Shown here piece by piece: positions 10,016 to 64,000 of a DNA stretch of 64,000 nucleotides (the stretch's first letter is position 1; each line of letters opens with the position of its first letter). The position numbers and the translations under genes were made by a program. This DNA comes from Salvia splendens (taxonomy: Eukaryota > Streptophyta > Magnoliopsida > Lamiales > Lamiaceae). The stretch is taken from contig NC_056034.1 in NCBI RefSeq assembly GCF_004379255.2, positions 9,922,501 to 9,986,500 on the forward strand, in the 5' to 3' direction. The notes beneath the pieces were generated by a model. The model ran no database searches, was not told the origin of the DNA, and was given only the letters and a program-made list of their open reading frames with translations.

Positions 10016-10898
10016 ATTAGCGTCCGATAGCTTTGAAACACATTTTCCCGACCCGATAAAAACATGGGCTTCCAGCTACTACTATCCTTGTAGGTTGTGT
10101 AACTCTTATCACAGCCGAAGGCATGTACAAGGATTGATCTTTTTCCCCCTTCTCCTGAAAACAAACACTTTATCCTCGCCTCTCTCCAAATTCAAGCAAC
10201 TATTCACGAAATCATCATCCTCGTCGTTCTAAATTCACTCCTTCGACAAATTGGACTTGATCTCCTCATCAGTTTCGGCGAAATCGTAATTTATTTGGGC
10301 GAAATCATAATTCATTTGTTGAATTCAATTTGTTCGCGTCGAGGATGACGATTCCGTGAACAATCAACCCACTCAATCTCGCCTATGGAATAATCAACCC
10401 ACTCAATTTCCATGAACAATCAATCCACTCCTTCGTCTACTTCACACCTCAATCTCCAGCAACAATTACCTCCAATTTCCATGGCGGAAACCCAATCAAC
10501 CCACTCCGCCGAACCCAAAATCGGCTACTGCCCACCCCCACCCCCATCCTCCCGCCATCAAAGCCCATTTCCATCTCCTCACACACCCTCTCCTCCACTC
10601 CCCTGCCACTCCGACCTCCGCCGCCCTCTCCACAACTACATTTCTCATCGTCGAATTAGGACTTGATCTTCGCCAAATTAAGTCATTCACCCAAATTAGA
10701 ACTGATGACTTTAAGTCATTCCAAACTCAAATAAGGGACTGTTTAGGCAGTTCATAATTATTTTCACAAACTTGGGCTTTCGACCAAACAACTACCCGTG
10801 GGCTTTCAGGGATATATGGTTTGTACCAAACACAATATAGTCACCAAAAAGACTGTCCTTATGCATGTGAAAAGCCCACTATCTAGGAAACCATGAAA
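10016..10898. other. Intergenic, low-complexity, no gene recognised
   Basis: Contains pyrimidine- and CCACC-rich stretches near 10520-10630 that create proline-rich open frames on both strands, and repeats of 'aatcaacccactcaat' near 10360-10440. It could be decayed transposon coding sequence, but I could not assign it. Confidence 0.45.
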
Positions 10899-11305
10899 AT
10901 TACTTCCATGGGTACCACCCGCCTCCTTAGGAAATTATAACGAGGTGATGATTAGATTGTTTATGAAAGTCAGAGAAAATGAGGGAAAAATGTAATTAAA
11001 AAAAAACATAAGCTACATCTGATTTATCAAATTACTTCCATGGGTACCGCCCGCCTCCTTAGGAAATTATAACGAGGTGATGATTAGCTTGTTTATGAAA
11101 GTCAGAGAAAATGAGGGAAAAAATGTAATTACAAAAAAAACATAAGCTACATCTGATTTATCAGAGCCAGGTTTCGATTTACTTCCATGGGTACCACCCG
11201 CCTCCTTAGGAAATTATAACGAGGTGATGATTAGCTTGTTTATGAAAGTCAGAGAAAATGAGGGAAAAAATGTAATTACAAAAAAAACATAAGCTACATT
11301 TGATT
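10899..11305 (-). repeat. Three serial copies of the tRNA-iMet 3' flank
   Basis: A unit of about 132-147 bp starting TTACTTCCATGGGTACC occurs at 10899, 11031 and 11178. It always contains an A-run that reads as an RNA polymerase III terminator T-tract on the minus strand. The copy boundary at about 11160-11178 also contains the last 18 nt of the tRNA (T-arm and 3' acceptor strand). The duplications therefore started inside the tRNA gene. Confidence 0.85.
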
Positions 11306-11377
11306 TATCAGAGCCAGGTTTCGATCCTGGGACCTGTGGGTTATGGGCCCACCACGCTTCCGCTGCGCCACTCAAAT
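11306..11377 (-). tRNA. Initiator tRNA-Met (CAU), acceptor stem slightly altered
   Basis: Read on the minus strand, GGCGCAGCGGAAGCGTGG, the anticodon stem-loop with CAT at 11343-11345, and GGATCGAAACCTGGCTCTGAT are the plant initiator tRNA-Met. The initiator-specific GGG/CCC pairs flank the anticodon loop. The 5' acceptor strand reads ATTTGAG where I expect ATCAGAG, leaving a G-U pair and a T-T mismatch. An oligo-T terminator lies about 20 bp downstream (11279-11286). It may be a functional variant or a decaying copy. This tRNA primes both large retrotransposons at the right of the window. Confidence 0.85.
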
Positions 11378-11384
11378 CAATGTT

Positions 11385-11660
11385 AAATTCATTTCCTTTT
11401 TGTATCTTTTGTTCTATTGTTCTTTTTAATCTCAGCCCCACGATTTTGTCATCCGACGGTTAGATTGATGCCGCGTGTCATTTAATAATGCAGATTTTTA
11501 GTTGAATAATGCACACCGACTAATAATGCATCATTATAGTGTAATAATGCAGATCATCACAACAATCTAATTCAAGGATCCAAGGGTTGTGATTAAAAAG
11601 AAGCTTGGACTGAAAAGCTGCGAAGCACCTTAACACACCCATATATATATATATATATAT
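11385..11660. other. Likely end fragment of another TA-microsatellite-bounded element
   Basis: Several 'aataatgca' repeats occur between 11485 and 11560. The segment then ends 'ttaacacaccc' directly at an (AT)10 tract (11641-11660), beyond which the next element starts. The layout mirrors the ends of the two (TA)n elements but the sequence differs, so this may be a related family. Confidence 0.4.
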
Positions 11661-11826
11661 GGTAGTGATCTATGGCAAACACCTCTTAACCAAATAACTA
11701 GAGAACAAATAATAGCCACAAGATCAAAAAAATCAAGGGCTAGTATTAATTTTCGAATTTAAGGAGATATTAGTTCCATTAATCATAAATTTACTCTATA
11801 ATAAAAATGCAGGGGTATTATGGTCA

Positions 11827-12246
11827 TTGCATAGCCATGGCTTCCATGGCTTCCCCCGCCTCAGGAAGCTCATGTTCTACAATTGCTTCGCGCAGACGCA
11901 GACTCCATTCCCCAATTTATCATCCCTCAGCCACGCATCCTCGTTAGAGGAGCTGATCTTCATCGAGAATCCCGCCCTAATCGGTACCCTCCACGGCAGG
12001 ATCAGAAACCTAAAACGACTCCGGCGGCTAATTCTCACCGGAACCGGCGTCTCCGGCGGGATCACCGAATGGATCGGGAAATTTGCCGTTCTCGAGCAGC
12101 TTACCCTCTCGAGAAACGGATTCTCCGGCGAGATTCTGATTAACGCCTTCCGTAACATGACGAAGCTCAAAATTCTCGATCTGAGCAACAATGCGTTTGA
12201 AGGATCTCTGCCGGAATCGATTTCGGAAGCCAAATTTTATGAATAG
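11827..12246 (+). pseudogene. Captured LRR-protein fragment (PII-2-like)
   Basis: An open frame of about 139 residues with tandem plant-type leucine-rich repeats, for example NLKRLRRLILTGTGVSGGI and LTKLKILDLSNN-like spacing in MTKLKILDLSNNAFEGSLP. The order and motifs (LEELIFIENPALIGTLHG) resemble the Piriformospora indica-insensitive protein 2 group of secreted or membrane LRR proteins. The N-terminal signal peptide and C-terminal region are missing. It is internal to a transposon and has no obvious promoter, so I read it as a captured exon piece. Confidence 0.65.
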
Positions 12247-12565
12247 CTTCTGACTATTTTTAACCCCTCGGGTTGAAGGTGGGAAAAATCTCTTGATTCT
12301 GTAGCTGCAGATTTTTGTGCAATATGTGGAATTCGCATTTTTTGTAAAGACTTTGAATTATTAGTATATACGTGAGATCTATTATATTAGTGGCACTATT
12401 GCATTTGGGATATGAAGCATGGAATCTATTTTGATGTTCGGTTGATTTTTATCATTGCTAATTTAGAAGTTTAGTTTGTGTATATACTCATTGTGTGCCA
12501 ATACATGGTCGCAATTGAAAATTGACAATATATCCCTGTCGATTATTATTATTATTATTATCAAT

Positions 12566-13156
12566 AAGAGTGATGTGTTTAGTAAACAAGAGCGGATTAA
12601 AATCATGCTAAGAGTGATGTGTTTTGTAAACAAGAGTGAAGTAAAATCATGCTAAGAGTGATGTGTTTTGTAAACAAGAGTGAAGTAAAATCACGCTAAG
12701 AGTGATGTGTTTTGTAAACAAGAGTGAAGTAAAATCATACTAAGAGTGATGTGTTTTGTAAACAAGAGTGAAGTAAAATCGCGTTAAGAGTGATGTGTTT
12801 TGTAAACAAGAGTGAAGTAAAATCATACTAAGAGTGATGTGTTTTGTAAACAACAGTGAAGTAAAATCATGCTAAGAGTGATGTGTTTTGTAAACACGAT
12901 TGAAGTAAAATCATGCTAAGAGTGATGTGTTTTGTAAACAACAGTGAAGTAAAATCATAATAAGAGTGATGTGTTTTGTAAACAAGAGTGAAGTAAAATC
13001 ATACTAAGAGTGATGTGTTTTATAAACAAGAGTGAAGTAAAATCATGCTAAGAGTGTTGTGTTTTGTAAACAAGAGTGAAGTACAATCATGCTAAGAGTG
13101 ATGTGTTTTGTAAACAACAGTGAAGTAAAATCATGCTAAGAGTGATGTATTTTGTT
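12566..13156. repeat. 44-bp minisatellite, about 13 copies
   Basis: The unit contains GAGTGATGTGTTTTGTAAAC followed by AAGAGTGAAGTAAAATCATG. Copies differ by a few bases each. The same 44-bp unit recurs at 14996-15393. There are no unique spacers between copies. Confidence 0.95.
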
Positions 13157-13388
13157 ACCGGGTTAAAGACATTGAAAAATGCCGTTCAAGGATGTAATTG
13201 AACGCACATCGTGCATCACAAATTCAATTTGACAATCACTCCAACAGTTCACCTCTGTTTCTTGAAACACAATTTTTTATTTAAAATTTTCTGAAATCAT
13301 ACCATATACATATCACACTAACATATTTCCATTCTTTGGAGAAAATTCATATGTTTTTTTTTTAAATGTAAGAAACTACTACTATGAA

Positions 13389-13742
13389 TCAACATCCAGC
13401 TGCACCGAATCCCAGCTTCCCTCCGGCGACATCATACACCACTTCAAATGTCAATTGCTGCGTGTTTCCGAAGATTCCGGTGTCTGTGGCGTCTCCGTTT
13501 CCGGCGAAAGCAAGGCACGCCACCGTGGAGCAAACCGATATCAGTATCCCCGACGGGATGAAGTCGATCTTCACTCCGCCGCCGAATGCGAACGACACGG
13601 TGGGGATTGTGACGGTCGTGTAGTTGGAGAAGTCGAAGCTCGTGTCCAAGATGGAGTACACCGGCGCCGCCAGGTAATTCTTCATCCCGTCGCCGGAGAG
13701 GAAGTGGAGTCGTGCTCCGTCACCTCCTTTGAGAGAGAGCAT
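13389..13742 (-). pseudogene. Captured C-terminus of a nepenthesin-like aspartic protease
   Basis: 117 residues on the minus strand with YSILDTSFDFSNYTTVTIP, VSFAFGGGVKIDF, ACLAFAGNGDATDTGIFGN and the terminal KLGFGAAGC. This is the end of a plant A1-family secreted aspartic protease, with the family's Gly-rich C-terminal motif. The catalytic DTG/DSG domains are absent, so it is not a working enzyme. It lies right of the minisatellite in element 1. Confidence 0.75.
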
Positions 13743-13929
13743 AGTGTGTCTACGAGAATGGTGTGTGTATATGCAGGAATGGTGTGTGTGTTTGATTTCC
13801 CAAAATGTCCCTATGCAATTTGTATGAGTTAAAAATGTATGCTTATTTTAGTCATTGGATTAAGATAATGTGTGGCTGAGATTTGTTTTCTAGTTATACA
13901 CTTAAAATTAGTTATATCTTGATCACTAA

Positions 13930-13931
<2 letters not shown>

Positions 13932-13977
<46 letters not shown>
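13932..13977. repeat. (TA)23 microsatellite joining two elements
   Basis: 46 bp of perfect TA repeats. The right end of element 1 abuts its left side and the left end of element 2 abuts its right side. Confidence 0.97.
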
Positions 13978-13980
<3 letters not shown>

Positions 13981-14234
13981 CAGTGATATAGGGCAAGTGT
14001 CCACTAACTACATAACTAGAGAACAAATCACAACTACAAGATTAAGGAAATTAAGGACTAGTATTAATACATGTAATTTATGAATTTAAAGGATAAATTA
14101 GTTCATTTTCTCACAAATTTACTCCACGATAACAAAGTGGGGGTATAATGGTCAGAAATATAAGAATTACATGTATTAATACTAGTCTTTGATTTTCTTA
14201 ATATAGGTATAATGGTCAGAAATATAGGAATTAC

Positions 14235-14514
14235 CTTACGAAGCTGATGTGCACGCCAAGGCTTCGATGAACTCCCGAACAATCAATGCACAGGAAGATC
14301 CCATACGTAACCGACGCCCAAGTCGGATTCTTCGCGTTGCAATCGAAACACATCTGAAATTCCAATTAAGATATCCAAATAAAAAGAGGAGGTTAGATCT
14401 GAATTAGATCTCAAACCAAAATTGCACAAGAAAACGAAAATGAACCTTATTATCGGACTTGGCTCTTAGCTTGCGGAAAATGGCGTTTCTGTCGGTGGAG
14501 GTGTCGGTAACCAT
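14235..14514 (-). pseudogene. Captured 5' part of an ARF GTPase-activating protein gene (AGD8/9/10-like)
   Basis: Exon 1 (14446-14514) starts ATG and encodes FRKLRAKSDNK. A GT-AG intron follows, then exon 2 (14235-14353) with [20 protein letters not shown] and [19 protein letters not shown], ending at a donor-like GT in phase. The C-x2-C-x16-C-x2-C zinc finger and the Arg of the HRSLG block, needed for GAP activity on ARF GTPases in vesicle traffic, are intact. The rest of the protein is missing. The retained intron shows that capture was from DNA, not from mRNA. Confidence 0.75.
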
Positions 14515-14682
14515 GGCGCTGTAGCTTAACGGGATCCGGTATAGACAAAGATGTATACGCGAATGATTTTTTATTTGAATTTTTATTTTTGAGAGAGAAA
14601 GACGTTTCTTTGTCGGTCTCTCTCTAGTTTCTGTATCTCCCACCCCTCACCCTTTTGAATGCGAAAATGAGAGCAGAGAGAA

Positions 14683-14928
14683 ATGCAATCTCAGCTCTTC
14701 TTCTCAATCGTGGCGATAATGGTGGCGTTCTGCTCGTGCTTGCTGTTTTTCGAGCACGGGTGGGTGGCGGTGGCGCTGCTGCTGATTTTTCTGGTGATTG
14801 TGCCGACGATGTTTGTGGTGTTGAAGTATCCTTTGTTGAGGACTATCTTAAGTTGTACGTATAGCTGCACCTGGTTGAGGACAAGTAATAAAGATGAAGC
14901 AATTCTCCGAGGTTGTGATAATGCATAG
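14683..14928 (+). pseudogene. Unrecognised hydrophobic frame inside element 2
   Basis: The frame encodes about 60 residues with two membrane-spanning stretches (FFSIVAIMVAFCSCLLFF and VAVALLLIFLVIVPTMFVV) before losing character near 14860. G+C content is higher than in the surroundings, as in a captured exon. It starts 169 bp from the ARF-GAP start in divergent orientation. I do not recognise the family. An overlapping frame at 14655 looks less protein-like. Confidence 0.35.
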
Positions 14929-14995
14929 ATCAATTTAAGAGAAAGAGAGAGAGAGGTTGAACAAGAAAAAAGAAGTTTCGGAATAGTGAAAGCTG

Positions 14996-15393
14996 ACAAC
15001 AGTGAAGTAAAATCATGTTAATAGTGATGTATTTTATTAACAACAGTGAAGTAAAATCATGCTACTAGTGATGTGTTTTGTTAACAACAGTGAAGTAAAA
15101 TCATGCTAATAGTGATGTATTTTGTTAACAACAGTGAAGTAAAATCATGCTAATAGTGATGTATTTTATTAACAACAATGAAGTAAAATCATGCTAATAG
15201 TGATGTGTTTTGTTAACAATAGTGAAGTAAAATCATGCTAATAGTGATGTGTTTTGTTAACAACAGTGAAGTAAAATCATGCTAATAGTGATGTGTTTTG
15301 TTAACAACAGTGAAGTAAAATCATGCTAATAGTGATGTGTTTTGTTAACAAAAGTGAAGTAAAATCATTCTAATAGTGATATGTTTTGTTAAC
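14996..15393. repeat. 44-bp minisatellite, about 9 copies
   Basis: The unit contains ATAGTGATGTGTTTTGTTAAC followed by ACAGTGAAGTAAAATCATG-type sequence. It is the same 44-bp unit as at 12566-13156 with consistent differences. Each copy holds the palindrome TTGTTAACAA. Confidence 0.95.
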
Positions 15394-15426
15394 TCATATT
15401 GCTCCATTTTAAATAAAAACTATTGA

Positions 15427-17226
15427 GAGCATCCACAACCGTGCTCTGCCAACGGCACGGTTGTGGGCCCGGGCGGTACTATTCATGCCTGCTCTCTGGC
15501 AAGAGCACAACACTCACAACTGTGCTCTTCCGCAAGGACGAGCACAATTAATTTAATATTCAATTAAACATAAACATTTCCATAATACTAAAATTCATTA
15601 AAAAATCACAATAAATATTACAAAATACAAATAAAATAAAAAGACATAATTAAAATCCTAAAAATTAAAAATTACATAATTAAAATACTAAAAATTAAAA
15701 TTACATAATTATTGGCTAATATTACCCGAGGAAGACTACTCATCCGGCGGCAACAACCCCAATTGTTTTTGGAGACCTTTTATCATGGTCTCGTGTGTTT
15801 CAAGTTGCGTGGGGGTCATAGATGACATATCGGCCATATTGAGTTGGCTTAAGAGCATCCACAGCGAGTTGTTCGGGGGTGGAGGTGGCACATAGGGAGC
15901 GGGAGCGGCTTCGGGAGTGGCTTCGGGAGTCGAGCCGCGACGACGGTTGGCCGCCGTCTTCTTCCTTCCTTGGGGGCGGCGTTGGGAACCGCTCGGTCCG
16001 GCGTCGGGGCTACCCAAGTTAGCTCCGGCGAGTTGGCTAGCCACTTCTTCCGAGCCGGAGTCGGATAGGGCTACCGACCTTGATCGTTTGGAGGAGCCGC
16101 TAGAGGAGGATGTTATGCCTCCCTTATACTTCGGGTGCGTCCGTTTCTCCTGCCAAACATTAAGATATTTGAACGACTTACCGTTCATGGATTGGTAGGT
16201 GCTCAGCGCGGCGGGGATGATGTCGACCTCACTTCGGCCGCTCCCGGCATTCCGGGACTCCTGGATGAAATAGCCGTTGAACTTGCCAATTTCTTCGTTG
16301 GCTCGGCCGATGCAGTTGCGCACCATACTCTCGTTGCGCTCGATCGTTCCGGGCGGCCGGTTTGCATTGTACCGGCTAGAGACGCGCCACCAAAAGTGAT
16401 CGCCGGATTGGTTCGTTCCAACCACCGCATCTTCGGAGATTTCCAAGTACGCCTTGAACAATCTTTCCATCTCCGCCGGTGAGTACGGTGTGCGGACACC
16501 GGCGCGAGATGGAGGAATCGGCATCTGGGAAGGGGCGCGATGCCTAGGCTCCGGTGTCCACCCGTAGCGCCCTTCGGAGGCACCTTGGTCGCCGATTGGG
16601 TATGGACGGTAGCCACCCGGAACGGCCGAATCTTGGGTTTGAGGAGGGGCCGAATATTCCGTTTCCGGACTAGGAAACGGTTGTGAACCGAACCATTCGG
16701 GGTTCCAACCGTGGGAGCCCGAAGGGTTATCGTCTTGGCCGGACATAGTGATGTTGTAGGGTATGAGAGAATGAAGATGAAAATGGATATGAGAGAATGG
16801 AGATGAGAATGGATATTGGAGAATGATGATGAGAGTTGTGTAGTTTGATGTGAATTTTTGGGGTGAAATTGAGGGTATTTATAGATGAAAGTGTGTATTT
16901 TTGAGGTAAAAAAAATGAAAAAAAAAATTAAAAAGGTGTAAAAAATGGTTATAAACGGATATATTTTTTTGGGGAAGTGAAATTTTTTTTTTATTTTTTA
17001 TCGGTTAAAAAAAAAACCGATTTTTTTAAAAAAAAATAGAAATTTTTTAAACACAACGGTCGAGCCGTTGACGAATGGGAGGCTGCCACGTGTGCGTCCG
17101 CTGGCACGGACGTGCTCGATACATCGAGCAGCGCCGTGCCAGCGGCGCGAGCGCAGCGGCTGCGGATGGCGTCCGTGCCAGCGGCGCGGACGGCGGTGGC
17201 GACGGACGCCACCGCTGCACATGCTC
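15427..17226 (-). mobile_element. PIF/Harbinger element with intact ORF1 only
   Basis: The left end GAGCATCCACAACC and the reverse complement of the right end GAGCATGTGCAGCG form imperfect inverted repeats with a 3-bp duplication TGA at 15424-15426 and 17227-17229. The element is 1,800 bp and carries a single minus-strand gene with Myb/SANT-like features and no transposase. Confidence 0.75.
15736..16746 (-). CDS. Harbinger ORF1, Myb/SANT-like DNA-binding protein
   Basis: An uninterrupted 336-residue frame starts ATG at 16746. The first ~80 residues are Gly/Pro/Ser-rich. The Myb/SANT-like trihelix region follows at about 90-190, with YSPAEMERLFKAYLEISEDA, HFWWRVSSRYN and RNCIGRANEEIGKFNGYF. 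Next comes KSFKYLNVWQEKRTHPKYK, typical of the no-apical-meristem-associated C-terminal family, and then a basic stretch (RRPQGRKKTAANRRR). In PIF/Harbinger transposons the ORF1 product binds the element ends and helps bring the transposase to the nucleus. It is the only intact transposon protein gene I found in the window. It may supply ORF1 to other copies. Confidence 0.8.
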   Translation of the reverse strand: MSGQDDNPSGSHGWNPEWFGSQPFPSPETEYSAPPQTQDSAVPGGYRPYPIGDQGASEGRYGWTPEPRHRAPSQMPIPPSRAGVRTPYSPAEMERLFKAYLEISEDAVVGTNQSGDHFWWRVSSRYNANRPPGTIERNESMVRNCIGRANEEIGKFNGYFIQESRNAGSGRSEVDIIPAALSTYQSMNGKSFKYLNVWQEKRTHPKYKGGITSSSSGSSKRSRSVALSDSGSEEVASQLAGANLGSPDAGPSGSQRRPQGRKKTAANRRRGSTPEATPEAAPAPYVPPPPPNNSLWMLLSQLNMADMSSMTPTQLETHETMIKGLQKQLGLLPPDE

Positions 17227-17559
17227 TGAAGTTGTTCGGCAGCGAAGTGAGAGATTACAAAATATTCATATTTCCCATGTCATGAATCCACGTTCCCAAT
17301 CGCCAAAATTTCCAATTATTTTAGTATATATAGAGAGAGGGAGGTTGGGTGGCATAATTTACTGGAAATGCTTGAAATTCGTTACATTGTTGGCGATCTT
17401 TGATGGATCAACAGCCTTCTGGACTGCTCTTTACAGAAAACTTCTTTTTATTCATATCAACAACAGATACGAATAAAGGGATGTTCAAAATATTCTCATC
17501 TTTTTTTGTTACTTTTTCATATAATTATATTTATTTAGTATTCCATCAGCAATTGCTGA

Positions 17560-17674
17560 ATTATTCCCATTTTCTCGAGCAATTAGATGGGAGCAGAATA
17601 TGGTGGAGAAAGAGAGAAATGTCATCGGATTCATGAGGAGAGTAGTAGTGATTGTTATCGGAGAGATTGGCCAT
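17560..17674 (-). pseudogene. Possible captured bHLH N-terminus (SPATULA/ALCATRAZ-like)
   Basis: A minus-strand ATG at 17674 opens a frame with SPHESDDISLFLHHIL, then a stop at about residue 39. The acidic-hydrophobic DDISLFLHHIL block resembles the N-terminal motif of SPATULA/ALCATRAZ bHLH factors. No bHLH domain follows. The call rests on one short motif. The surrounding 17230-17816 is not otherwise explained. Confidence 0.28.
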
Positions 17675-17816
17675 CGAAACATGAAAAAAGGCGGTGGTGG
17701 AGTATGATTTTTTGTTTGAATATGAAACGAGGAGGAAATGAAGGAGAGAGAGGGAGGGACCAGTTGTGGTGAAAAACAAGCGCGGCTTTTGAGTATGCAG
17801 AAGGAGGCGTATGTGA

Positions 17817-19606
17817 GAGTGTACACTATAAGGCGGACACCCCAATAGCCCCGGCCCAGTTTTTGTCCATAGCCCCAAAATTATTGTTCACAGCCCTAAA
17901 AATTTGTTTTCGCCACTATAGTGGATATTTTCAATAGCCCTCAAATTTTATAATCAATTTTCATTTTAAAATGTTTTTAGTTTCAATCATGTATAATTAA
18001 AATCGTCACAATGTAAATAATTAGAAAACGAGGTAATTGAGACCGAATATTCATTGTATTGAAAATTGTAAAATTATACAACGAATATTAGCTGCAGACG
18101 TCCTACAGTTGTTGCATCAACTGCACATCGAGGATGCACGATCCAGACGCGGCCGACGATGGGCGGGAGGCACTTCTAGCCCCTCTAGCGCTGCGGATAG
18201 ATGCCTGTTGTCCCGGGGGCCGTCTTCGCCTAGTGTGTGCAGCGGCGGGCTCTTCGACTAGCTCGTCGTTCTGCTCGAACGAGTGCGAGCCGCTTCCACT
18301 ACTGTAGTCCCCGACAAGGTTGTGCCTTGTACGCTTCGGTCCAGGGCTCTTGCGCGCAAATGTCCTTGAATTTCGGACAATCCGCAAGGACTAGATACTC
18401 CTCCCACATTGTAAACTTCGGCCAGCCCTCCGTGTTGTATTGGCCTATCGACAGGGCCTTCACGTCTGCTTCGCTTCGGCCACTCTCAGCGTGGAGAAGG
18501 TTGTTCTGGTATATGCTCGCGAACCGCTTGGTAGCCGGCAGAATCCTAGACCACTTTTTGCGGATCTGTTCTGGGTCGCTCTCTCGGGCGCTGGCAGGTT
18601 TGAACTCGTTGTATGCCATCAAGACGCGCCTCCAAAAGCTCCCCTCGGTCTGATTGGTGCTCACTATAGGGTCCGATGTGATGGCATCCCACTCTCTCGC
18701 CACGGTAATGGACTCCACTTTGGTGTAGAGCTTGCCCCGTTTGGAGCCCTCGCCACCTCCACTGCCGACGCCGCTGCCCTCGCCACCGCCGCTGCCCGAG
18801 CCGCCGCCGCCACCGCGACCGTCGCCCCTACCGCCACCGCCACCGGCACTGCTTCGGGTCGGAACAGACGTTTCCACCCGTGCTGCAGGCGTATCCGGGA
18901 TGCCTGAACTGAGCAGACCCATCATGATTTCCAGAGCGTCTTGATCTGCTTCGGTGTAAGGAGATTGGCAGGATAGGAAAGGGGACTCCGGACGCGGCTG
19001 GTTAAGCGCGTCGAGGTTGGGTCTGTAATCTCCAAACGCCGAGCGACTTAGATTCCGCTGGAAAGGTTGGGGCGTTGGAGAAGACCTCCACAACTGAGAT
19101 GGAGGAAGGTTTGGACACGATGCCCACGGCGGGGGAGATTGACTCCAAATCCACGGCTGGGACGGAGACCCTCCATATCCCGAGGGCTGAGAAGGATAGC
19201 CGCCATATCCCGACGGCTGTGAAGGATAGCCGCCGACGGCTGTGAAGGATTGCCGCCATAGCCCGATTCCTGCGAGTCGGGTGATTCGTCGTCTCCACCG
19301 TGCATTTTTAGAGAGTGAAAGTGTAGATAGTGAATGAAGGGAGAGTGTGTGAAAATGGTGAAAAAATGGGTGGTGGAAGAGTGGTATTTATAGAGTTAAT
19401 TTAAAAAATAAATTAAAAAGGCGCGCCTATCGCCGACGCACTATGGTCGGCGTGCCTATAGGCGCGGCGAAAGGCCGACCGGCTCGTCCTCGCCCCGGTT
19501 TCGCCGAATGACCGTCCGCCCCGGGGCGGACGTCGCCTACACTATAATCAGCACCGGGATCGCCCCCGCCGGGGCTATAGGCGCGGCGGTCCCATAGTGG
19601 ATACCC
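17817..19606 (-). mobile_element. PIF/Harbinger element with broken ORF1 only
   Basis: The left end GAGTGTACACTATAAGGCG and the reverse complement of the right end GGGTATCCACTATGGGACCG are alignable imperfect inverted repeats. Flanking TGA (17814-17816) and TAA (19607-19609) could be a degraded 3-bp target duplication. Inside is one minus-strand ORF1 pseudogene. Confidence 0.65.
18100..19305 (-). pseudogene. Harbinger ORF1 (Myb/SANT-like), frameshifted
   Basis: The start codon is at 19305 (MHGGDDESPDSQESGYGG), followed by Gly-Tyr-Pro-Ser-Gln-Pro repeats. A frameshift near 19230 moves to the frame that carries AREWDAITSDPIVSTNQT, FWRRVLMAYNEFKP and KFTMWEEYLVLADCPKFKD. A second shift near 18370 leads to the Ser/Arg-rich C-terminus ending LDVQLMQQL. 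A low-complexity Gly/Ser tract lies near 18740-18850. Domain order matches the intact copy at 15736-16746. Confidence 0.7.
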
Positions 19607-19908
19607 TAAGGTTTAATCAAATAATAGTTGCTGAGCCAAATGATTAATTTAGTTTCCAAAAATACCCTTATTATTTACTTTTTATTTAAAACATGTAAAA
19701 ATAGCTAAGCCATATGATTAATTTAGAGTATTAAGATGCGTGACTGAGATTTGTTCTCTAGTTATACACTTAATATTAGTTATACTTTGATCATCTCCCT
19801 ATATATATATGAGTAGGAGTACTGTAGTATTTTATTTTCGTCAGTGATAGTTACGAATACCTTATTACAAGCAATATTTGAGTAGTGAAAATAACTATAC
19901 TCCTACTT

Positions 19909-20167: not shown

Positions 20168-20207
20168 AAATACACATATTTTTATTAGATGGTGAAGATA
20201 TATATTA

Positions 20208-22109
20208 GGCCATCCACTACGCTGTCTCTATACCGTCCCTTAAACCGTCTCTTAACTACTATTTGAGCACTATTTGAGGGCCCCACTGTCCTTTTTTCAT
20301 CCATCCCTTAACTAAGGGACGGAACCTGCAACGCTCCGTCTCTTAACCGTCTCTATACCGTCCCTTAATTACTATTCATTCAATTTCATTTAGAAAATTT
20401 TTTTCTACCCAATTCAATTTAAACAAACACACTTTATTAAAAAACACACAAACTAAATAAACACACAAAATAAAAAAGACACAAAATATAAAAAAAAACT
20501 ACTCCGCCGGCGAATCATCCTCTGGAGGCGGTCAAGGTTTAGGGGGTGTCGGAAGGTCAAGTTGTGCTGCCATAACAACAATTCCGTTCCACCAGGCCGT
20601 GAATTGGGCGTACGAGAAGTGGGAAGTGTCCGCCATTGTGGCGGTCATGTACGCCACCATAAGTGTGTCCAAGCCTCCCCGCGAGCCCGAGGCCGGCTGG
20701 CTTGATTCGCCTCGGCCCTTCCTTGCTCTAGCCGCTTTCGCCGCCTTCGTCCCTTGCGGCCGACGGCGCCCACGCGCGGATCCTCCAGCATCGCCGACCG
20801 TACCCGCAAACTCCCGGGATTCAGCCTCAGGTTGGCTGATGCCATCGGTGTCACCACCAGACGAGTATTGACCACTCGTCGTATGCTTCGTGCGCTTCGA
20901 GGTTGAGCCCGAGCTGGAGCGGAAACCTCCGGCCCACCGTTCCTCGTCCTTGACGGCCTGCCAAACATCAACAAATCTGAATTGATGACCCTCGTCCTGG
21001 TAGCAGGCGCGCAAAGCGGACGTCAAAATGTCGGTGGCCGTGGCGCCGCTTTGGTAGCGCGCCTCTTCAGTCGAGTAGATGCCGCAGAATTTTTTGATCT
21101 GTCGGTCGACTCGGTCAAAGTGAGAGCGGAGCATTTTAACTTTGCGCTTGCGGGAGCCTTTCGGCTTTATCTGGTGGTAGACCTCGCAGACCTTTTCCCA
21201 TAAACACTTCCGGGTTTGTTGATTCCCGACGATGGGATCCTACGAGACCGTGATCCAGGCGTTGTACACCGCCATCGTTTCGTAGTTGCTGTACGGATGC
21301 CGGCCAAGATCCTCTTCTTCTTCTTCCTCCTCGTCCTCGCCCGCCTGGGGTTGTACACCGCCAGTGCCACCTCCACCGCCTCGGCCACCTCCACCGCCAG
21401 TGCCACCGGGAAAATCCTCCGGGATCTGGGATAATCCCTGCGAATACCGCGTGGCGGAGGGACGGGCATATGCATCAAGGTCAAAATTGGGTGGTTGGTA
21501 CCCCATCCGGCGTCGCCGAACCCTGAGTCCCAGGGGTTGACGAACCGGAACCGCCCAATGTGTTGATCATGGTCTCCCAATCGCCGAACGCATTGAGATC
21601 CCACCCGCCGGAGCCGGAACCGCCGTAGTTGCCGTCGCCGTCGCCGGACATCTTGAGTTGGTTTATGAAAATTTGAGAGAAAATTTGAGAGAAAATTTAG
21701 ATGATAGAAAGAATAGATGCGTAGTTGTGTGTGAAATGAGGATGAGTTTAGGAGTATTTATAGAGTAAAAAAATTAATAAAAAATCAAAAAAATTATAAA
21801 AAAAACAAAAAAACGGTATTATTACCGTTACAAAATTTTTTTATTTATTTAAATTCAAATTTTTTTAAAAAAAATATTTATTGCGTCAGCACGTGACGAC
21901 GCCCACTCGCGGGCCGGCGAGTGGGCGTCATGCACGACGCCGGGTTGCTCCACGTCGCCTCGGCGCGTGGCGAGACAGCCCGTCTCGTGGCTCGCCGGGA
22001 CGAGACGCGGGACGAGACGGGACGAGATGGAGGCCGCAACTCGTCGCGCCGGCGTCCCGTCTCGCCGGGACGAGACGCGAGACGCCGGCGAGACCCGTAG
22101 TGGATGGTC
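20208..22109 (-). mobile_element. PIF/Harbinger element with broken ORF1 only
   Basis: The inverted ends GGCCATCCACTACG and, in reverse complement, GACCATCCACTACG are nearly perfect and sit between TTA duplications at 20205-20207 and 22110-22112. The element is 1,902 bp. Subterminal DNA repeats GTCTC/GAGAC motifs. It carries a minus-strand ORF1 pseudogene. Confidence 0.88.
20532..21651 (-). pseudogene. Harbinger ORF1 (Myb/SANT-like), one stop and one frameshift
   Basis: A start at 21651 gives MSGDGDGNYGGSGSGG. The frame then shifts before 21506 into PPNFDLDAYARPS, a Gly-rich segment and an acidic run. An in-frame TAG at 21240-21242 interrupts the SANT region just before DPIVGNQQTRKCLWEKVCE. 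The same frame then continues with KMLRSHFDRVDRQIKKF, FRFVDVWQAVKDEERWAGGF and a basic segment to the stop at 20532. The order of parts is the same as in the copy at 15736-16746. Confidence 0.75.
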
Positions 22110-45934: not shown

Positions 45935-48489
45935 TGTCACGACCGCCCACCCCAGGGGTGTTACAAACGAGGCGATCGTGACCAAGGGACAAACATTTAA
46001 GAATATCATTTAAGGATTTTAGTTCATAAGAAAGACTCAAGTAGCTTGAAAGAATAGTATTTTAGTTCAAAAATATAGCAGCGGAAATAAGGTTTTAAAG
46101 AGAGTCAAGGATGACGCCTATGTATGAAGACACAACGCATCCATATTCCCTATGCCGACTCAACATCCACCGCAACATCCCGCTCAACCTGCACATAGGG
46201 AAAACACATGCAGGGCTGAGTACTTGATGTACTCAATGGGCTCATGCCGAAATTTTTTTTTCATAAAAACAGTTATGTCATCCATATCAGTGATCTCGAG
46301 TTTTATGTGTAGTTAAGAAATATCACGAGAACACAAAAATATTTCAAAGTCTGGCCAGACAATCAATCTCCCCACTTTCTCATCAATCATTCAATCACAT
46401 TCTCTTTCCATAGTGCGACGAAAGTGTGGCCACACTATTCGCCCACGAGACCGGCCGACTAGCAAGGACGGCTCACGATCCCACTTGTGTACACAGCCTG
46501 ATAGGGTTTGCGGCCCTATTCAGACCCGAATTCGTTTCATTCATAGCCATATAGCCTAACGGAGTAAACTCATACGAACTAGGCATCAGGCACATAATCT
46601 CAATCAAAACAATCCATGGCATGACATAACACTTTTAAACCACCCTTATTACACCATAATCATACTTTTGAAAGCGTAAAAGAGTTTAGTAAAAGAGAGC
46701 CCACCTCGTTTGCTTAAACCATTCAACATCCATTTAAGGCAACCCTCGTTCCTCGAGCTCACGTATACTCAATCACCCTTGCCAACGACAACACAAATCA
46801 GCCTTTCGTAAACTTATATTATCATGCATGTCCTATTGTTTCTCTCTCATCGTTATTCTCCATTTACCCAACCCAACGTTCGTCACAAAGGTGGAAAAAT
46901 AAACCATAATATATTTCAACGTATCACACGTGATCGCATTGTTAAACACGTTCCTTGGACATACATGCATCATATAATACTTTTAAACTTGGAAATAAGT
47001 GTCATTTTAATAAGACAGAAAACCGGCAGAATTGCGCGACCGTTTTGTAAAAATTACTATAAAATCACCCAACATCAAACGATGCTAAATTTTGGTCACA
47101 ATACAGAGGACACATTCAAGTTCATCCATGAAAATTTTCATATCGAAATCACGCCATTTAGTCAGTCATTTCACATATTGAACTCTCTGGTCAGAACATA
47201 TAATTTCTGACAGTATTGCGCAGTAAACTTCAAAAATTCACCAAAAATTCATCCTTCCTCATATGATGCTAAACTTTGGTCACAACACATTAGACACATT
47301 CAAGTTCACCCAGTTAAAATTTCACACCAAAATCGTGTCATTTGGTCAGTCAAAACATTTATGCAACTCTCTGATCGGAACATAAAATTCTAGCAGCACT
47401 GCGCAGTTCATTTGAAAAATTCACCGTAAATTCATACGATGTCCAATAAGGCTGAAATTTTCACAAGACTCAGAAGACACTCCAAATTTTCATCTAGTTC
47501 AAGAATCAAATCGATCGGAGGTCATTTGGTCGGTCAAACAGATTTCGAAACATTCTGGCCGAGAACACATGTTACTGGCAGAATTGCGCAGTCGACTTCA
47601 AACATTTTTCAAAAATTCATTTTTCGACAAAAGGGCTAAAATTTATACGAGACACAGAAATCACCTTGAAATTTACTCAGTAAAATTTTCGTATCAAAAT
47701 TCGACCGTTTGGTCAGTCAAATACACGTCGGAATCCACTGTCCGAACACCACAAATTTCATACTCAAAATTTCGAAATTTGAGTTTCTTCCACAATCATC
47801 CAAATAAAATTTTCTCATGCTTATAACACACAATCATGCTTGATAAGACTCTCTTAACATGTTTGCACATAAACTTAGATCATTTACCAAGGATTCAAAT
47901 CAAACTTCACACAACTTAATCAACAATAGCATAACTATCAAAGTTCTCAAGCAAACTCACTTTCCCACCGATTAACTTTGCGATCTATGATTCCTACACC
48001 CTCTATATGCATGTAGGATTCAAGAATAAAGTTTCAATGAAGGAGATGAGAAGGAAATCTTAGTTATACCTTCTTGAATCAAGAAAACGAACGGTAGAAA
48101 CAAACGTTGACACGATTCGTCCCTCTCCCTTCACTGCTGCCGCCGCTGCCACGAATCCGCCGTCGCGGATCCGCCGCCATCGGCTCCTCCTCTCTCTTCT
48201 CTCTCTCGGATTCTCGATTGCGAAAGAAATGAAATGAAATGAAAGGAGGTTGTATTTATAGAAAATATTTTCATAAAAGACAAAAAATCACGTCTTTTTG
48301 TTTCGATGTGACGCGTAATTAATGCGGCGTTGAAAAACGTGCCTGATGTGACGTGGTTCTTATCCACTTGGAAAACGTGCCTGATGTGACGCGGTTCTTA
48401 TCCAACTTTTCGTCTCGATTTGTTGTCGAAAGTGTATTTGATACGTGGTTTATTCTTTCGTGTAGGTAACGATTTAACGGGTCGTTACA
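45935..48489 (-). repeat. 3' LTR of the outer Ty3/gypsy element (2,555 bp)
   Basis: On the minus strand it starts TGTAACGACCCG and ends GGTCGTGACA. The first 823 bp from the left (45935-46757) align without any length difference to 63178-64000 and look identical in the parts I compared. Open frames inside it are not convincing genes. Confidence 0.92.
47008..47750 (-). repeat. About four degenerate ~190-bp tandem units inside the LTR
   Basis: Each unit carries in the same order 'attgcgcag', 'caaaaattca', 'gctaaa.ttt.g.cac', 'gaca.attcaa.tt', 'aaattttc..atc.aaat' and 'catttggtcagtca'. Divergence between units is high. Confidence 0.7.
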
Positions 48490-53035: not shown

Positions 53036-55719
53036 TGTAACAACCGGAAAAAAAAAAAGAAATTAAAAAAAAAAAAAATCTAACTTGGTCACCAAGTTAG
53101 TAAATTAATATATTTAAAAATTCTAAGATTTTTTTTCCTCCAAACCAGCCCCCTCTATATTAATCTTCAAATCAGTTATTCCTTCTTCTCTCTTATCGTT
53201 CCCTGCAATCAACAAAAAAAAAAAAAAAAAAAAAACAACAAGCTTCATTCTCTCAACTTCAATCCAAGAAACTGAGTCTACAAAATCTAGCGGGCTACTC
53301 CTTCCGGTCCTACAATTTCACAACCAATATCGTGTCATCGAGGTAAACCTCCTTTCCCGATCTAAACCTTCAATCCATGAAATGCATAGCATGTTTTTTT
53401 TATACTCAACCAAATCGCACAATCCAAAACAGTAACTACGATCTGGAATCAATCTTTTAGTCGTTTAAATCGAAGCGAACCGAATTCAAGAATCAGACTT
53501 TAATTCATGAAATCAATTAGAAACTTACGAGGGGGGGCTGTTTCGGGGTGGTGCGGGGTTGTTCGGGTTAGTTGCGGTGATGTTCGGGGTTGCACGACCA
53601 CCGGCGAGCAGCGTCTTCCCAGCGAGGTGACTGCGCGGCAACGACGGACGGCGACAGCAGCGGCGTCGCGGCTTCCGGTGGCGACAGCAGCGGCTGCAGT
53701 GGCTGGACGATGACGACGAATCGGCGGCGGCGTGAGCATAGCCGAGAGTAGGAGAGGAGAGGGGGAGCCGAGGGAGAGAAAGGAGGGGGAGAGGAAATAG
53801 GTGATGGAAGGAACACGCCGGCGGTGGAGCGACGGCGACGGAGCGACGGCGACGCCAGAGGGATGGCTGATCGACGGCAGCGAGGTGTGAAGCTGGGTGA
53901 GGGAGCTGAAACTCTAAATTTAGAGAAGGGGTTTTTTTCTATTTTGTGCAATTTGGGGGAAGAAGATGAATAATGATTGAGAGAGAGATGAAGAGTGATA
54001 CGTGGGGGGGATGTGGGAGTTAAAAATGGGGCTTGTTAATTTTTAAAAAATTTGGGCCATTTGTTTTAAAAAGAATTTGGGGCCTTTTGTTTTAAAAGAA
54101 TTGGGACTTATTAATTAAATGTTTTGTTTGGGCTCTTTTTATTTTGTTGGGGCTTCTTAATTAAATTGGGGATATAAGGTAGGGAAATAATTAAGTTTTG
54201 GGGCTTTTTAAATAAATCTTTGGGCCGATAATTAATCGTGACGAAATTATTTAATTAAATTCCGAAATAATTTTGAAGTATGAATAATTTACCCCAAGTT
54301 TCAAAATAAATATAATTGCGAGGGGAAATACTTGTGATGAATTATTTAAATAATCCCGGAATATTTCAAAGGATGAATAATTTTATCCTAAGTCCGAAAT
54401 AAATATATTTTTCGAGGGGAAATGGTTGCGATAATTTAATTGTGCACTTTTATAATTTTTGGGATTTTAATTCGACATCGTGGAGGGAAATACGAGGAGC
54501 CAACGGAGGAATTATGGGCGTAAGCGGCCGACCGGAGTCTCAAGCGACGTCTTGGGAGGCCGCCGAATAATTGAAAATATGTGAAAATCGAGAAACGAGA
54601 TAAAAGACTTTAATGAGGGTGCATGCATTCTAATTTAAGTAGTTTTTTTCTTGAGTCTAATTAGTGTATTATTATATTGTGTTTTTTTTAAAAAGGGTGC
54701 TTTCGCAAGTAAAGTCGGAACGAAAGATTCAAGTTAAGGAATCTAAACGATCAAGGTGAACTTTCTTATCCTACATACTAATGTGGATAAAAATGCAAAT
54801 TATTTTGAGGTGATATGTTATGAAAACTCGAACCTATGTTCGTTGCTGTTTCAAGTGATGTTGTCATGCCATAAATATTTTGTGTATGATGCCTATCTGT
54901 TGGCTACGGCCAAGTGAATTATGAATGATGATATAAGTCGAATTCGGGTCCCAGTGAGGGTGGTGTCCCCGCTCGGACTAGTGTACACAAGCTACCTCTG
55001 TCATGTTGGGCAGAGCAGGTGACCGTGGAAGGTGGCCACCTTCCCGGCACAAGGATACCTCTGACATGTTGGGCAGAGAAGGTGACCGAGGAAGGTGGCC
55101 ACCTTCCCGACACATGTATGTAAGGTGACCGTGTGAGAACACCATCTCAACGGCACAATGTGATCAGATATGGCTAAGTACAGGAAAAAGGGACTGCAGT
55201 CCAATGTGATATTTTTAGTAAGCTCGGGTCTTTTCAACAACACCCCGAGTGTTACTGTGATGATGGCTTGACAATATTTTCAAATGTATATGTGAAATTT
55301 TCGGCAATGTGTTCACTGAGTACTTTTTGTACTCAGCCCTGCATATATTTCTAAATGTGCAGGTTGAGCAGCGAAGTGGTGGAGGAAGTGCTATTGAGAC
55401 AAGACATTTAATTCAGTCAGATTTTGACTCTCGGAGGTTCATGTCTTCATACATGGAACCGCGTTCATTTGCTTCCGTTGTGCATTTTAAAAGACTCAAG
55501 TCTATTTTGTTCAAAACTCTGATATTTTGAAATTTTTACAAACAATTACTCGAGTCTTCATGATCGAGTATCTTTCTTCTATGTATCAACATTTAATTAG
55601 TCATGTCTCGCAACCAATGCTTGATTTTATTTTTCCCCTTATTTCTTTCCCCGCTTCTTTAATCCTCCCCTAGTCGCGATCAACCGTGTTTTCTATCCTT
55701 AGAAAATGCGGTCGTGACA
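53036..55719 (+). repeat. 5' LTR of the nested element (2,684 bp)
   Basis: Starts TGTAACAACCGG and ends GGTCGTGACA. It contains A-runs at about 53044-53075 and 53212-53235, a G+C-rich region at 53520-53920, and two 63-bp direct repeats at 54993-55118 that each contain the palindrome GAAGGTGGCCACCTTC (55028-55043, 55091-55106). Confidence 0.95.
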
Positions 55720-63177: not shown

Positions 63178-64000
63178 TGTCACGACCGCCCACCCCAGGG
63201 GTGTTACAAACGAGGCGATCGTGACCAAGGGACAAACATTTAAGAATATCATTTAAGGATTTTAGTTCATAAGAAAGACTCAAGTAGCTTGAAAGAATAG
63301 TATTTTAGTTCAAAAATATAGCAGCGGAAATAAGGTTTTAAAGAGAGTCAAGGATGACGCCTATGTATGAAGACACAACGCATCCATATTCCCTATGCCG
63401 ACTCAACATCCACCGCAACATCCCGCTCAACCTGCACATAGGGAAAACACATGCAGGGCTGAGTACTTGATGTACTCAATGGGCTCATGCCGAAATTTTT
63501 TTTTCATAAAAACAGTTATGTCATCCATATCAGTGATCTCGAGTTTTATGTGTAGTTAAGAAATATCACGAGAACACAAAAATATTTCAAAGTCTGGCCA
63601 GACAATCAATCTCCCCACTTTCTCATCAATCATTCAATCACATTCTCTTTCCATAGTGCGACGAAAGTGTGGCCACACTATTCGCCCACGAGACCGGCCG
63701 ACTAGCAAGGACGGCTCACGATCCCACTTGTGTACACAGCCTGATAGGGTTTGCGGCCCTATTCAGACCCGAATTCGTTTCATTCATAGCCATATAGCCT
63801 AACGGAGTAAACTCATACGAACTAGGCATCAGGCACATAATCTCAATCAAAACAATCCATGGCATGACATAACACTTTTAAACCACCCTTATTACACCAT
63901 AATCATACTTTTGAAAGCGTAAAAGAGTTTAGTAAAAGAGAGCCCACCTCGTTTGCTTAAACCATTCAACATCCATTTAAGGCAACCCTCGTTCCTCGAG
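63178..64000 (-). repeat. 5' LTR of the outer element, truncated by the window end
   Basis: 823 bp matching 45935-46757. If it is as long as the 3' LTR it should end about 1.73 kb beyond the window. Confidence 0.92.

What the first reader, a model, noticed from the sequence alone, without database searches (positions are those of the whole stretch)
11661..19799. A family of gene-capturing elements that sit between TA microsatellites
Two adjacent elements (11661-13931; 13978-19799) have homologous inverted ends with the shared block ATAACTAGARAACAAAT, both bounded by TA repeats. Each has a modular layout: end, captured gene piece, 44-bp minisatellite, second captured piece, end. The captured genes differ (LRR protein and aspartic protease; ARF-GAP, a membrane-like frame and perhaps a bHLH). 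Excluding nested Harbingers both are about 2.2 kb. There is no transposase. I cannot assign the ends to Pack-MULE, Helitron or Pack-CACTA. A gene-shuffling non-autonomous family with microsatellite targeting would be new to me.
Basis: partly seen in the sequence, partly recalled or inferred. Interest (0 to 1): 0.82.

Follow-up and report, generated by a model that had tools for sequence, protein, structure and literature searches.

The report
Gene-capturing transposons in TA microsatellites
These are two members of a family of plant jumping elements that sit in TA repeats and carry copied scraps of host genes on either side of a central minisatellite, and copies of the family carry the same scraps in different pairings.

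Summary
E1 (11661-13931) and E2 (13978-19799) have related imperfect inverted ends, (TA)n on every side and a shared 44-bp minisatellite. In the window's own genome (806 Mb) the left terminus GGGTAGTGATCTATG occurs 333 times, 281 directly after TATA. Of 39 copies read, 35 have both ends, 2.1-5.7 kb apart. Three copies with little or no adjoining TA carry 10-bp duplications, and related sites without the element were located for two copies. This is a non-autonomous, gene-capturing Mutator-like (Pack-MULE-type) family of the TA-associated sort already described as Micron, TAFT, MuTAnT and SaTar. Neither TA association nor capture is new by itself. What the papers I saw do not show is the combination: a 44-bp minisatellite array in all 37 complete elements examined, with captured halves paired differently around it. 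The 37 hold 15 left and 15 right module types in 17 pairings; in three comparisons one half is shared and the other differs, with homology running through the minisatellite. Probable donors of six pieces lie elsewhere in the genome at 87-98% identity; one piece keeps an intron. No autonomous partner was found, within capped searches. New variant of a known kind.

The parts
11642..11659 (.). (TA)9 tract, left boundary of E1
11661..13931 (+). Element E1 (2271 bp), non-autonomous Mutator-like, gene-capturing
   Evidence: sister copy with the same cargo L009 on C8
11661..11826 (+). E1 left end, the family's conserved 166 bp
   Evidence: 39 other places at 94-98% over at least 158 bases (only 40 candidates scored)
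11852..12221 (+). Captured LRR gene piece, left module
   Evidence: C1:41935925-41936294 at 98%, C2:38227616-38227987 at 95%
12565..13155 (+). 44-bp minisatellite of E1 (13.4 copies)
13370..13688 (-). Captured aspartic-protease C-terminal piece, right module (left limit set by my query)
   Evidence: C21:24030477-24030795 at 97%, C10:3189146-3189449 at 93%
13838..13931 (+). E1 right end (TIR-like)
13932..13977 (.). (TA)23 tract shared by E1 and E2
13978..19799 (+). Element E2 (5822 bp with two nested inserts; 2243 bp without them by my cut)
13978..14154 (+). E2 left end
   Evidence: 73% to the E1 left end over 173 columns
14235..14695 (-). Captured ARF-GAP piece with a 92-bp GT-AG intron (14354-14445) kept (left limit set by my query)
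   Evidence: (C10:26241427-26241885, 97%; C9:30677987, 82%)
14694..14877 (+).
   Evidence: C15:2959315-2959498, 97%; C3:21775430, 94%
14996..15393 (+). 44-bp minisatellite of E2 (9.0 copies)
15427..17226 (-). Nested insert flanked by TGA/TGA, with a 380-aa frame weakly like NAM-associated C-terminal (below Pfam's cut-off; probably Harbinger-type, inferred)
17233..17584 (+). Captured piece, right module of E2
   Evidence: C9:17890837-17891224, 87%; C10:16011165, 82%
17581..17815 (+). Second captured piece, right module of E2; alignments overlap the first by 4 bases
   Evidence: C5:31460940-31461175, 90%; C6:27507896, 75%
17824..19599 (-). Second nested insert (CACTAT ends, 362-aa frame without a Pfam match; limits approximate, no duplication resolved)
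19710..19799 (+). E2 right end (TIR-like)
19800..19809 (.). (TA)5 tract, right boundary of E2

Best explanation
E1 and E2 are non-autonomous, gene-capturing Mutator-like elements (a Pack-MULE-type family) that insert mostly at (TA)n microsatellites and are moved by a Mutator-like transposase encoded elsewhere in the genome. Shown: paired conserved ends with imperfect TIRs, hundreds of left termini, TA flanks in most, 10-bp duplications in three TA-poor copies, related sites without the element for two copies, captured DNA at the DNA level (intron kept, one case), a 44-bp minisatellite between the captured halves, and halves that occur with different partners with homology running through the minisatellite in three comparisons. 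Inferred: the transposase in trans; that the TA tract was there before insertion; that capture occurs when repair or replication of the element interior switches template to unlinked genes (end-anchored nested mosaics; 2- and 4-base overlaps at two junctions); and that re-pairing of halves uses strand annealing or unequal recombination inside the minisatellite, which members share internally.
For: Ends paired in 35 of 39 copies read, 2070-5721 bp apart. Terminus 333 times, 281 after TATA. TA run of at least 10 nt within 6 bases on both sides in 29 of 37 elements and on one side or more in 35 of 37, against 82 of 63400 window positions for one side. Exact 10-bp duplications in L012, L042 and L046. 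Sites without the element: joined L046 flanks run unbroken at C5:4419898-4420376 over query 1-502 (77%); joined L034 flanks run unbroken at C457:46611-47122 over 1-490 (93%). Minisatellite array in 37 of 37 complete elements. 15 left and 15 right module clusters, 17 pairings by my count from that call. L017 and L022 share left half and minisatellite and then differ; L016 and L039 likewise with gaps; L015 and L035 share from the minisatellite to the right end. E1's right half occurs at 13 places at 98% or better, its LRR piece in only two elements. Matching loci elsewhere for six pieces. Intron kept. Modules 98-100% alike within cargo groups.
Against: The 39 copies are the best matches to one left end, not a random sample. 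Four of 39 lack a right end within about 6.5 kb, and one of these (L033) shows no minisatellite 13-mer in the DNA read. Donor loci were located by coordinates and identity only; their DNA was not read, nor was the TA content of the sites without the element. Overlaps of 2 and 4 bases can be chance. Several halves part company before the minisatellite: L012/L021 at 261 bp, L011/L028 at 250-260 bp, L010/L018 at about 125 bp, and L039 shares only the last 440-510 bp of the right half of L015 and L035. No half was shown to be fully shared in both directions.
Confidence: 0.83

Rival explanations
1. A new superfamily, or another known one (Helitron, CACTA), that inserts at TA repeats and captures genes.
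For: No MULE-transposase domain among the 40 frames scanned with Pfam (not every frame of every element), and no autonomous copy was found.
Against: Exact 10-bp duplications in 3 copies and TIRs aligning over about 62 columns fit Mutator-like elements and not Helitrons (no TIR, no duplication) or CACTA (CACTA ends, 3-bp duplication); those two definitions are recalled.
Confidence: 0.07
2. The TA tracts mostly grow after insertion (slippage in the duplicated target) rather than being long beforehand, as proposed in part for maize TAFT elements.
For: TA run lengths differ widely between copies and sides, up to 90 nt. PMC5907723 (Discussion part 1) reports short empty TA sites in maize that are expanded after insertion. 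I did not read the TA content of any site without the element.
Against: 281 of 333 termini follow TATA, which needs at least a TA-containing target. Tracts are shared with other repeats: a G..GATC-type terminus beyond the tract at 23 of 37 elements and a high-copy repeat ending at one tract. The L034 site without the element spans 512 bp against a 490-bp query that held a 10-nt TA join, so little or no long tract is missing there; target choice and later growth may both act.
Confidence: 0.2
3. The shared minisatellite is a passive leftover of the ancestral element, and the different pairings arose by successive replacement of one half, not by exchange between copies.
For: Nested, end-anchored mosaics show replacement behind each end. 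One half can be replaced without exchange. The apparent right type with three left partners (L015, L035, L039/L043) is full-length only for L015 and L035; L039/L043 share just its last 440-510 bp, so no half is proven to be exchanged in both directions.
Against: Homology ends near minisatellite edges in three comparisons. E1's right half is at 13 places but E1's left piece in only two, which needs the same right half beside other left halves, although those were not read.
Confidence: 0.42
4. Two unrelated elements that only look alike, or an assembly artefact.
For: None beyond the window view.
Against: Hundreds of dispersed termini, 39 further left ends on many contigs, sister copy of E1 on C8 at 98-99%.
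Confidence: 0.01

Closest known systems
SaTar elements (guayule, rice, sorghum, citrus; PMC5907723: Background, Results, Discussion part 1 of 2 and the 'gene evolution' section read)
   Same: Non-autonomous Mutator-like, TIRs, most copies in microsatellites (often TA), a minority with 10-bp duplications, arrays of unnested elements joined by a microsatellite.
   Different: SaTars described there are about 230-1900 bp; three of five rice families were called non-Pack-MULE, and gene contribution is only raised as a potential. Here the complete elements examined are 2.07 kb or longer, 8 of 17 pairings have a Pfam gene domain or a located donor, and all 37 have a 44-bp minisatellite.
MuTAnT (Medicago; PMC4486113, parts 1 and 2 of 4 read: abstract to end of Discussion)
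   Same: Mutator-like, (TA)n sites, 9-nt duplications in the few copies outside perfect TA, empty sites with TA repeats.
   Different: Mostly 200-300 bp foldback elements; a putative autonomous copy is known; no captured genes are described in what I read.
TAFT (maize) and Micron (rice)
   Same: TA-microsatellite-flanked DNA transposons, as cited in PMC4486113 and PMC5907723.
   Different: Original papers not read; whether TAFTs carry gene pieces was not checked.
Pack-MULEs (rice and other plants)
   Same: Non-autonomous Mutator-like elements with pieces of unlinked host genes.
Pack-TIR and FoSTeST model (PMC8277862, passages read)
   Same: Capture by template switching with short overlaps (median 2 bp there).
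   Different: Animal elements; the authors leave open whether the models apply to plant Pack-MULEs.

Membership tests
Mutator-like elements (MULEs) | Terminal inverted repeats, usually long | tested here: met
   Consensus ends align over about 62 columns with gaps; E1 arms 80 nt at 75% complementarity, part of it TA repeat
Mutator-like elements (MULEs) | 8-11 bp target duplication | tested here: met
   Exact 10-bp duplications in L012, L042, L046. Of the other 32 complete fetched copies, L015 and L036 gave no match (L036's right end was set a few bases short), L011, L035 and L043 ambiguous 9-12 bp TA-plus-G or C matches, the rest TA only, so length cannot be read there
Mutator-like elements (MULEs) | Moved by a mudrA-type transposase | tested here: inconclusive
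   At least 150 PF10551 matches in the genome; none of 130 compared lies within 31 kb of 130 left ends
Pack-MULE | Internal pieces of host genes from unlinked loci | tested here: met
   Matching loci for six pieces of E1/E2; Pfam domains in L010, L012, L013, L016, L021, L028. Donor DNA not read
Pack-MULE | Capture at DNA level (introns kept) | tested here: met
   92-bp GT-AG intron in the ARF-GAP piece; one case
SaTar / TAFT / MuTAnT type | Most copies inside (TA)n, minority with ordinary duplication | tested here: met
   29 of 37 with TA on both sides, 35 of 37 on one or more; 281 of 333 termini after TATA
SaTar / TAFT / MuTAnT type | Unnested arrays that share a TA tract | tested here: met
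   E1-E2; own-family ends 16-59 bp away in L021, L036, L039, L043, and 353 bp away in L027; G..GATC-type terminus across the TA tract next to 23 of 37 elements
SaTar / TAFT / MuTAnT type | TIR sequence related to an autonomous TA-associated MULE of the host | tested here: inconclusive
Helitron | No TIR, no duplication, CTRR 3' end with hairpin | tested here: not met
   TIRs and 10-bp duplications present; the CTRR hairpin itself was not scanned
CACTA / Pack-CACTA | CACTA ends, 3-bp duplication | tested here: not met
   Left end GGGTAGTG, 10-bp duplications

The most novel reading that the evidence does not exclude
The 44-bp minisatellite is a working part: a family-wide recombination hub at which left and right gene-bearing halves are exchanged, so the family acts as a combinatorial shuffler of host gene pieces that lands in TA repeats and so spares genes. 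Capture adds a piece behind an end; the hub re-pairs it with pieces captured by other copies.
Probability: 0.3. Interest if true: 0.78.

Novelty: new variant of a known kind. Interest (0 to 1): 0.6.

Why it matters
How Pack-MULEs take up and recombine gene pieces is unsettled; PMC8277862 (passages) says that whether gap filling or fork-stalling template switching applies to plant Pack-MULEs is worth exploring. A young family (modules 98-100% alike within cargo groups) with many cargo pairings, a fixed internal repeat as reference point and probable donors still present makes that testable by sequence alone. It also joins two lines of work that the papers I read treat apart: targeting of TA microsatellites and gene capture.

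Tried and rejected
Minisatellite derived from the ends: not supported. Local alignment of the unit with the E1 ends scored no better than shuffled ends (88 to 429 of 500 shuffles as good).

Autonomous copy among the longest elements: L013 (5.7 kb) and L034 (5.3 kb). L034 holds a DUF4371 frame (hAT-like, recalled), not a MULE domain. For L013 one frame was scanned (C2H2); its other frames were only listed.

Sites without the element: the E1-E2 right flank holds a high-copy repeat and the left-flank search did not complete. L047 failed because its left flank is itself a high-copy repeat ending at the TA tract. A script comparison of joined flanks of the 35 copies among the fetched loci gave only matches that I read as shared neighbouring repeats.

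Left halves of the other copies of E1's right half: not read. That they are complete elements with another left half is inferred from the absence of the LRR piece and from a TA-flanked left terminus 1.6-2.75 kb upstream in the same orientation for 5 of the 6 other copies at 98% or better on C1-C6, plus one 90% copy on C3 (one search lists only its first 100 places).

Pfam on 20 further frames gave no match above a family's cut-off, and 3 of the 10 frames gave none, so many modules are unidentified. PDB search of the protease frame: no match at 0.001. The host was not identified; about 22 large contigs in 806 Mb made me think of Salvia splendens (recalled, untested, a search on that name with 'genome assembly' and 'Mutator', found no paper).

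Dropped before counts: L029, L032, L033 and L040 (no right end) are left out of the 37; C551:13098 (82%) and the own copy are left out of the 39; 20 of 150 MULE places and the left ends on small contigs were not typed into.


Full report
What is there. E1 (11661-13931) and E2 (13978-19799) stand side by side, separated and bounded by (TA)n tracts that are three of the four (TA)5-or-longer tracts in the window. All four ends are related, directly and as inverted repeats. Each carries an array of the same 44-bp unit. E2 is enlarged by two nested inserts at 15427-17226 and about 17824-19599.

A family, not a pair. The window lies in an 806-Mb genome that could be searched. E1's left end gave 41 matches including itself; only 40 candidates were scored. 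Thirty-nine others are at 94-98% over at least 158 bases, and one (C551:13098) at 82%. I fetched the 39 with flanks. In 35 of 39 a right end follows, element lengths 2070-5721 bp; L029, L032, L033 and L040 have none within about 6.5 kb. The terminus GGGTAGTGATCTATG occurs 333 times exactly (reversed control 0 and 1), and TATAGGGTAGTGATCTATG 281 times (control 0 and 0). E1 lacks one G and E2 differs more, so neither matches that string and the family is larger than the count.

Target and class. Of the 35 complete copies plus E1 and E2, 29 have a TA run of at least 10 nt within 6 bases on both sides and 35 on at least one side; one-sided background is 82 of 63400 window positions. L036 counts against this only because I set its right end a few bases short. 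Exact 10-bp duplications that are not pure TA occur in L012 (CATCCATATA, itself TA-rich), L042 (TGCTCTAAAT) and L046 (TAGGGAGTAT, left end slightly altered); L011, L035 and L043 give ambiguous matches, L015 and L036 none, the rest TA only. Joined flanks of L046 run unbroken through C5:4419898-4420376 (77%, query 1-502), a related locus without the element. Joined flanks of L034, a TA copy, run unbroken through C457:46611-47122 (93%, query 1-490) and at 80-81% through six further places, with more distant ones; the letters at those sites were not read, so their TA content is unknown. TIRs plus 10-bp duplications place the family with Mutator-like elements, as argued for SaTars (PMC5907723).

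Arrays. Other ends of the same family lie 16-59 bp away in L021, L036, L039 and L043, and 353 bp away in L027. Across the TA tract a terminus of the type G..GATC stands next to 23 of 37 elements (26 of 66 TA-bounded sides; 45 of 132 sides of other TA tracts in the same loci; 216 of 20000 random window positions). One such neighbour (left of L047) is a high-copy repeat whose match ends at the tract in 38 further places. This resembles the unnested arrays described for SaTars.

Cargo. E1: the LRR piece (11852-12221) matches C1:41935925 at 98% and C2:38227616 at 95%; the protease piece matches C21:24030477 at 97% and C10:3189146 at 93%. E2 left: the ARF-GAP piece matches C10:26241427 at 97% and the adjoining piece C15:2959315 at 97%, alignments overlapping by 2 bases; a further 100 bases resemble C5:43230780 at 89%. 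E2 right: two pieces matching C9:17890837 (87%) and C5:31460940 (90%), overlapping by 4 bases. The ARF-GAP piece keeps a 92-bp GT-AG intron, so capture was from DNA. Other cargo types hold GT47, C2H2, sulfate-transporter, RPE65-type and AUX/IAA pieces (7 of 10 frames matched, one of them DUF4371); 20 more frames gave nothing above a cut-off. In all, 8 of the 17 pairings have a gene domain or a located donor. The donor loci match only inside the captured stretch; their DNA was not read. GC of the six pieces is 0.53, 0.55, 0.43, 0.51, 0.33 and 0.44 against 0.39 for the window, so there is no uniform GC bias.

The minisatellite and the halves. All 37 complete elements carry the 44-bp array between a left and a right module; seven (the L018 group) have forward and inverted units in one block, and L012, L013, L022, L026, L031, L039, L042, L043 and L045 have more than one block. 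Modules cluster into 15 left and 15 right types at 50% coverage, in 17 pairings by my count. One left type (L017; L022, L031, L045) has two right partners, another (L016; L039, L043) two, and one right type (L015, L035; L039, L043) three left partners; but L039 and L043 share only the last 440-510 bp of that right type. Homology of L017 and L022 runs from the left end to within about 11 bases of the minisatellite's right edge; that of L016 and L039 from the left end to about 20 bases short of the edge of L039's first block, with gaps (79.8%); that of L015 and L035 from the minisatellite's left edge to the right end (84.3%). Ends of alignments inside arrays are fuzzy. E1's right half is at 13 places at 98% or better, while its LRR piece is in only two elements, E1 and its sister on C8; 5 of the 6 other such copies on C1-C6 have the TA-flanked left terminus 1.6-2.75 kb upstream in the right orientation. 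Other pairs part company before the minisatellite (L012/L021, L011/L028, L010/L018 on the left; L018/L035 on the right), so cargo is also replaced stepwise behind each end.

How it most likely works. Shown: mobility (duplications, sites without the element, dispersed near-identical copies), TA association, capture of unlinked DNA, re-paired halves that meet at the minisatellite in three comparisons. Inferred: a Mutator-like transposase acts in trans; TA tracts are chosen as targets; capture happens by template switching during repair or replication of the element interior, as modelled for Pack-TIRs in PMC8277862 (passages); the minisatellite is where broken halves of different copies can anneal. 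The genome has at least 150 MULE-transposase matches, but none of the 130 that I compared lies within 31 kb of any of 130 left ends.

What is known. MuTAnT and SaTar establish TA-associated non-autonomous MULEs; both cite Micron and TAFT, whose papers I did not read. SaTar's authors called three of five rice families non-Pack-MULE and only raise gene contribution as a potential. Eight paper searches listed no paper whose title or abstract start shows a TA-targeted Pack-MULE family with a central minisatellite; a 2025 review searched for terms mentions microsatellites as landing pads and no MULEs (PMC12477314, passages). The library lacks most subscription papers and I opened four papers, so this is not proof of novelty.

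Verdict. A real and well-supported family; a new variant of a known kind.

Noticed in passing
20205-20395: High-copy repeat, 39 further places at 93-99% (only 40 candidates of 3749 scored), just right of E2.
   Followed up: no
45935-46757 and 63178-64000; 53036-55719 and 58633-61313: An 823-bp identical direct repeat that reaches the window end and a 2684-bp repeat pair at 99.7%, perhaps a large LTR-type or tandem insertion.
   Followed up: no
11306-11377, - strand: Rfam tRNA match (47.1 bits) beside short direct repeats at 10897-11325.
   Followed up: no
G000, many contigs: MULE-transposase matches with open frames of about 918-921 aa in many near-equal-scoring copies: a candidate source of transposase in trans.
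   Followed up: partly
L034 (C4:6963814 on), element positions 971-2911: DUF4371 frame of 647 aa inside the left module of a TA-flanked element, either a nested hAT-like insert or a captured gene.
   Followed up: partly
Left of L047, C4:12401600-12401851: Another repeat, 38 further places at 95-98%, whose match ends at a TA tract: a second abundant TA-associated family.
   Followed up: no
L018, L019, L020, L024, L036, L037, L038: Seven near-identical copies in which the 44-bp array switches to the inverted orientation half way.
   Followed up: no
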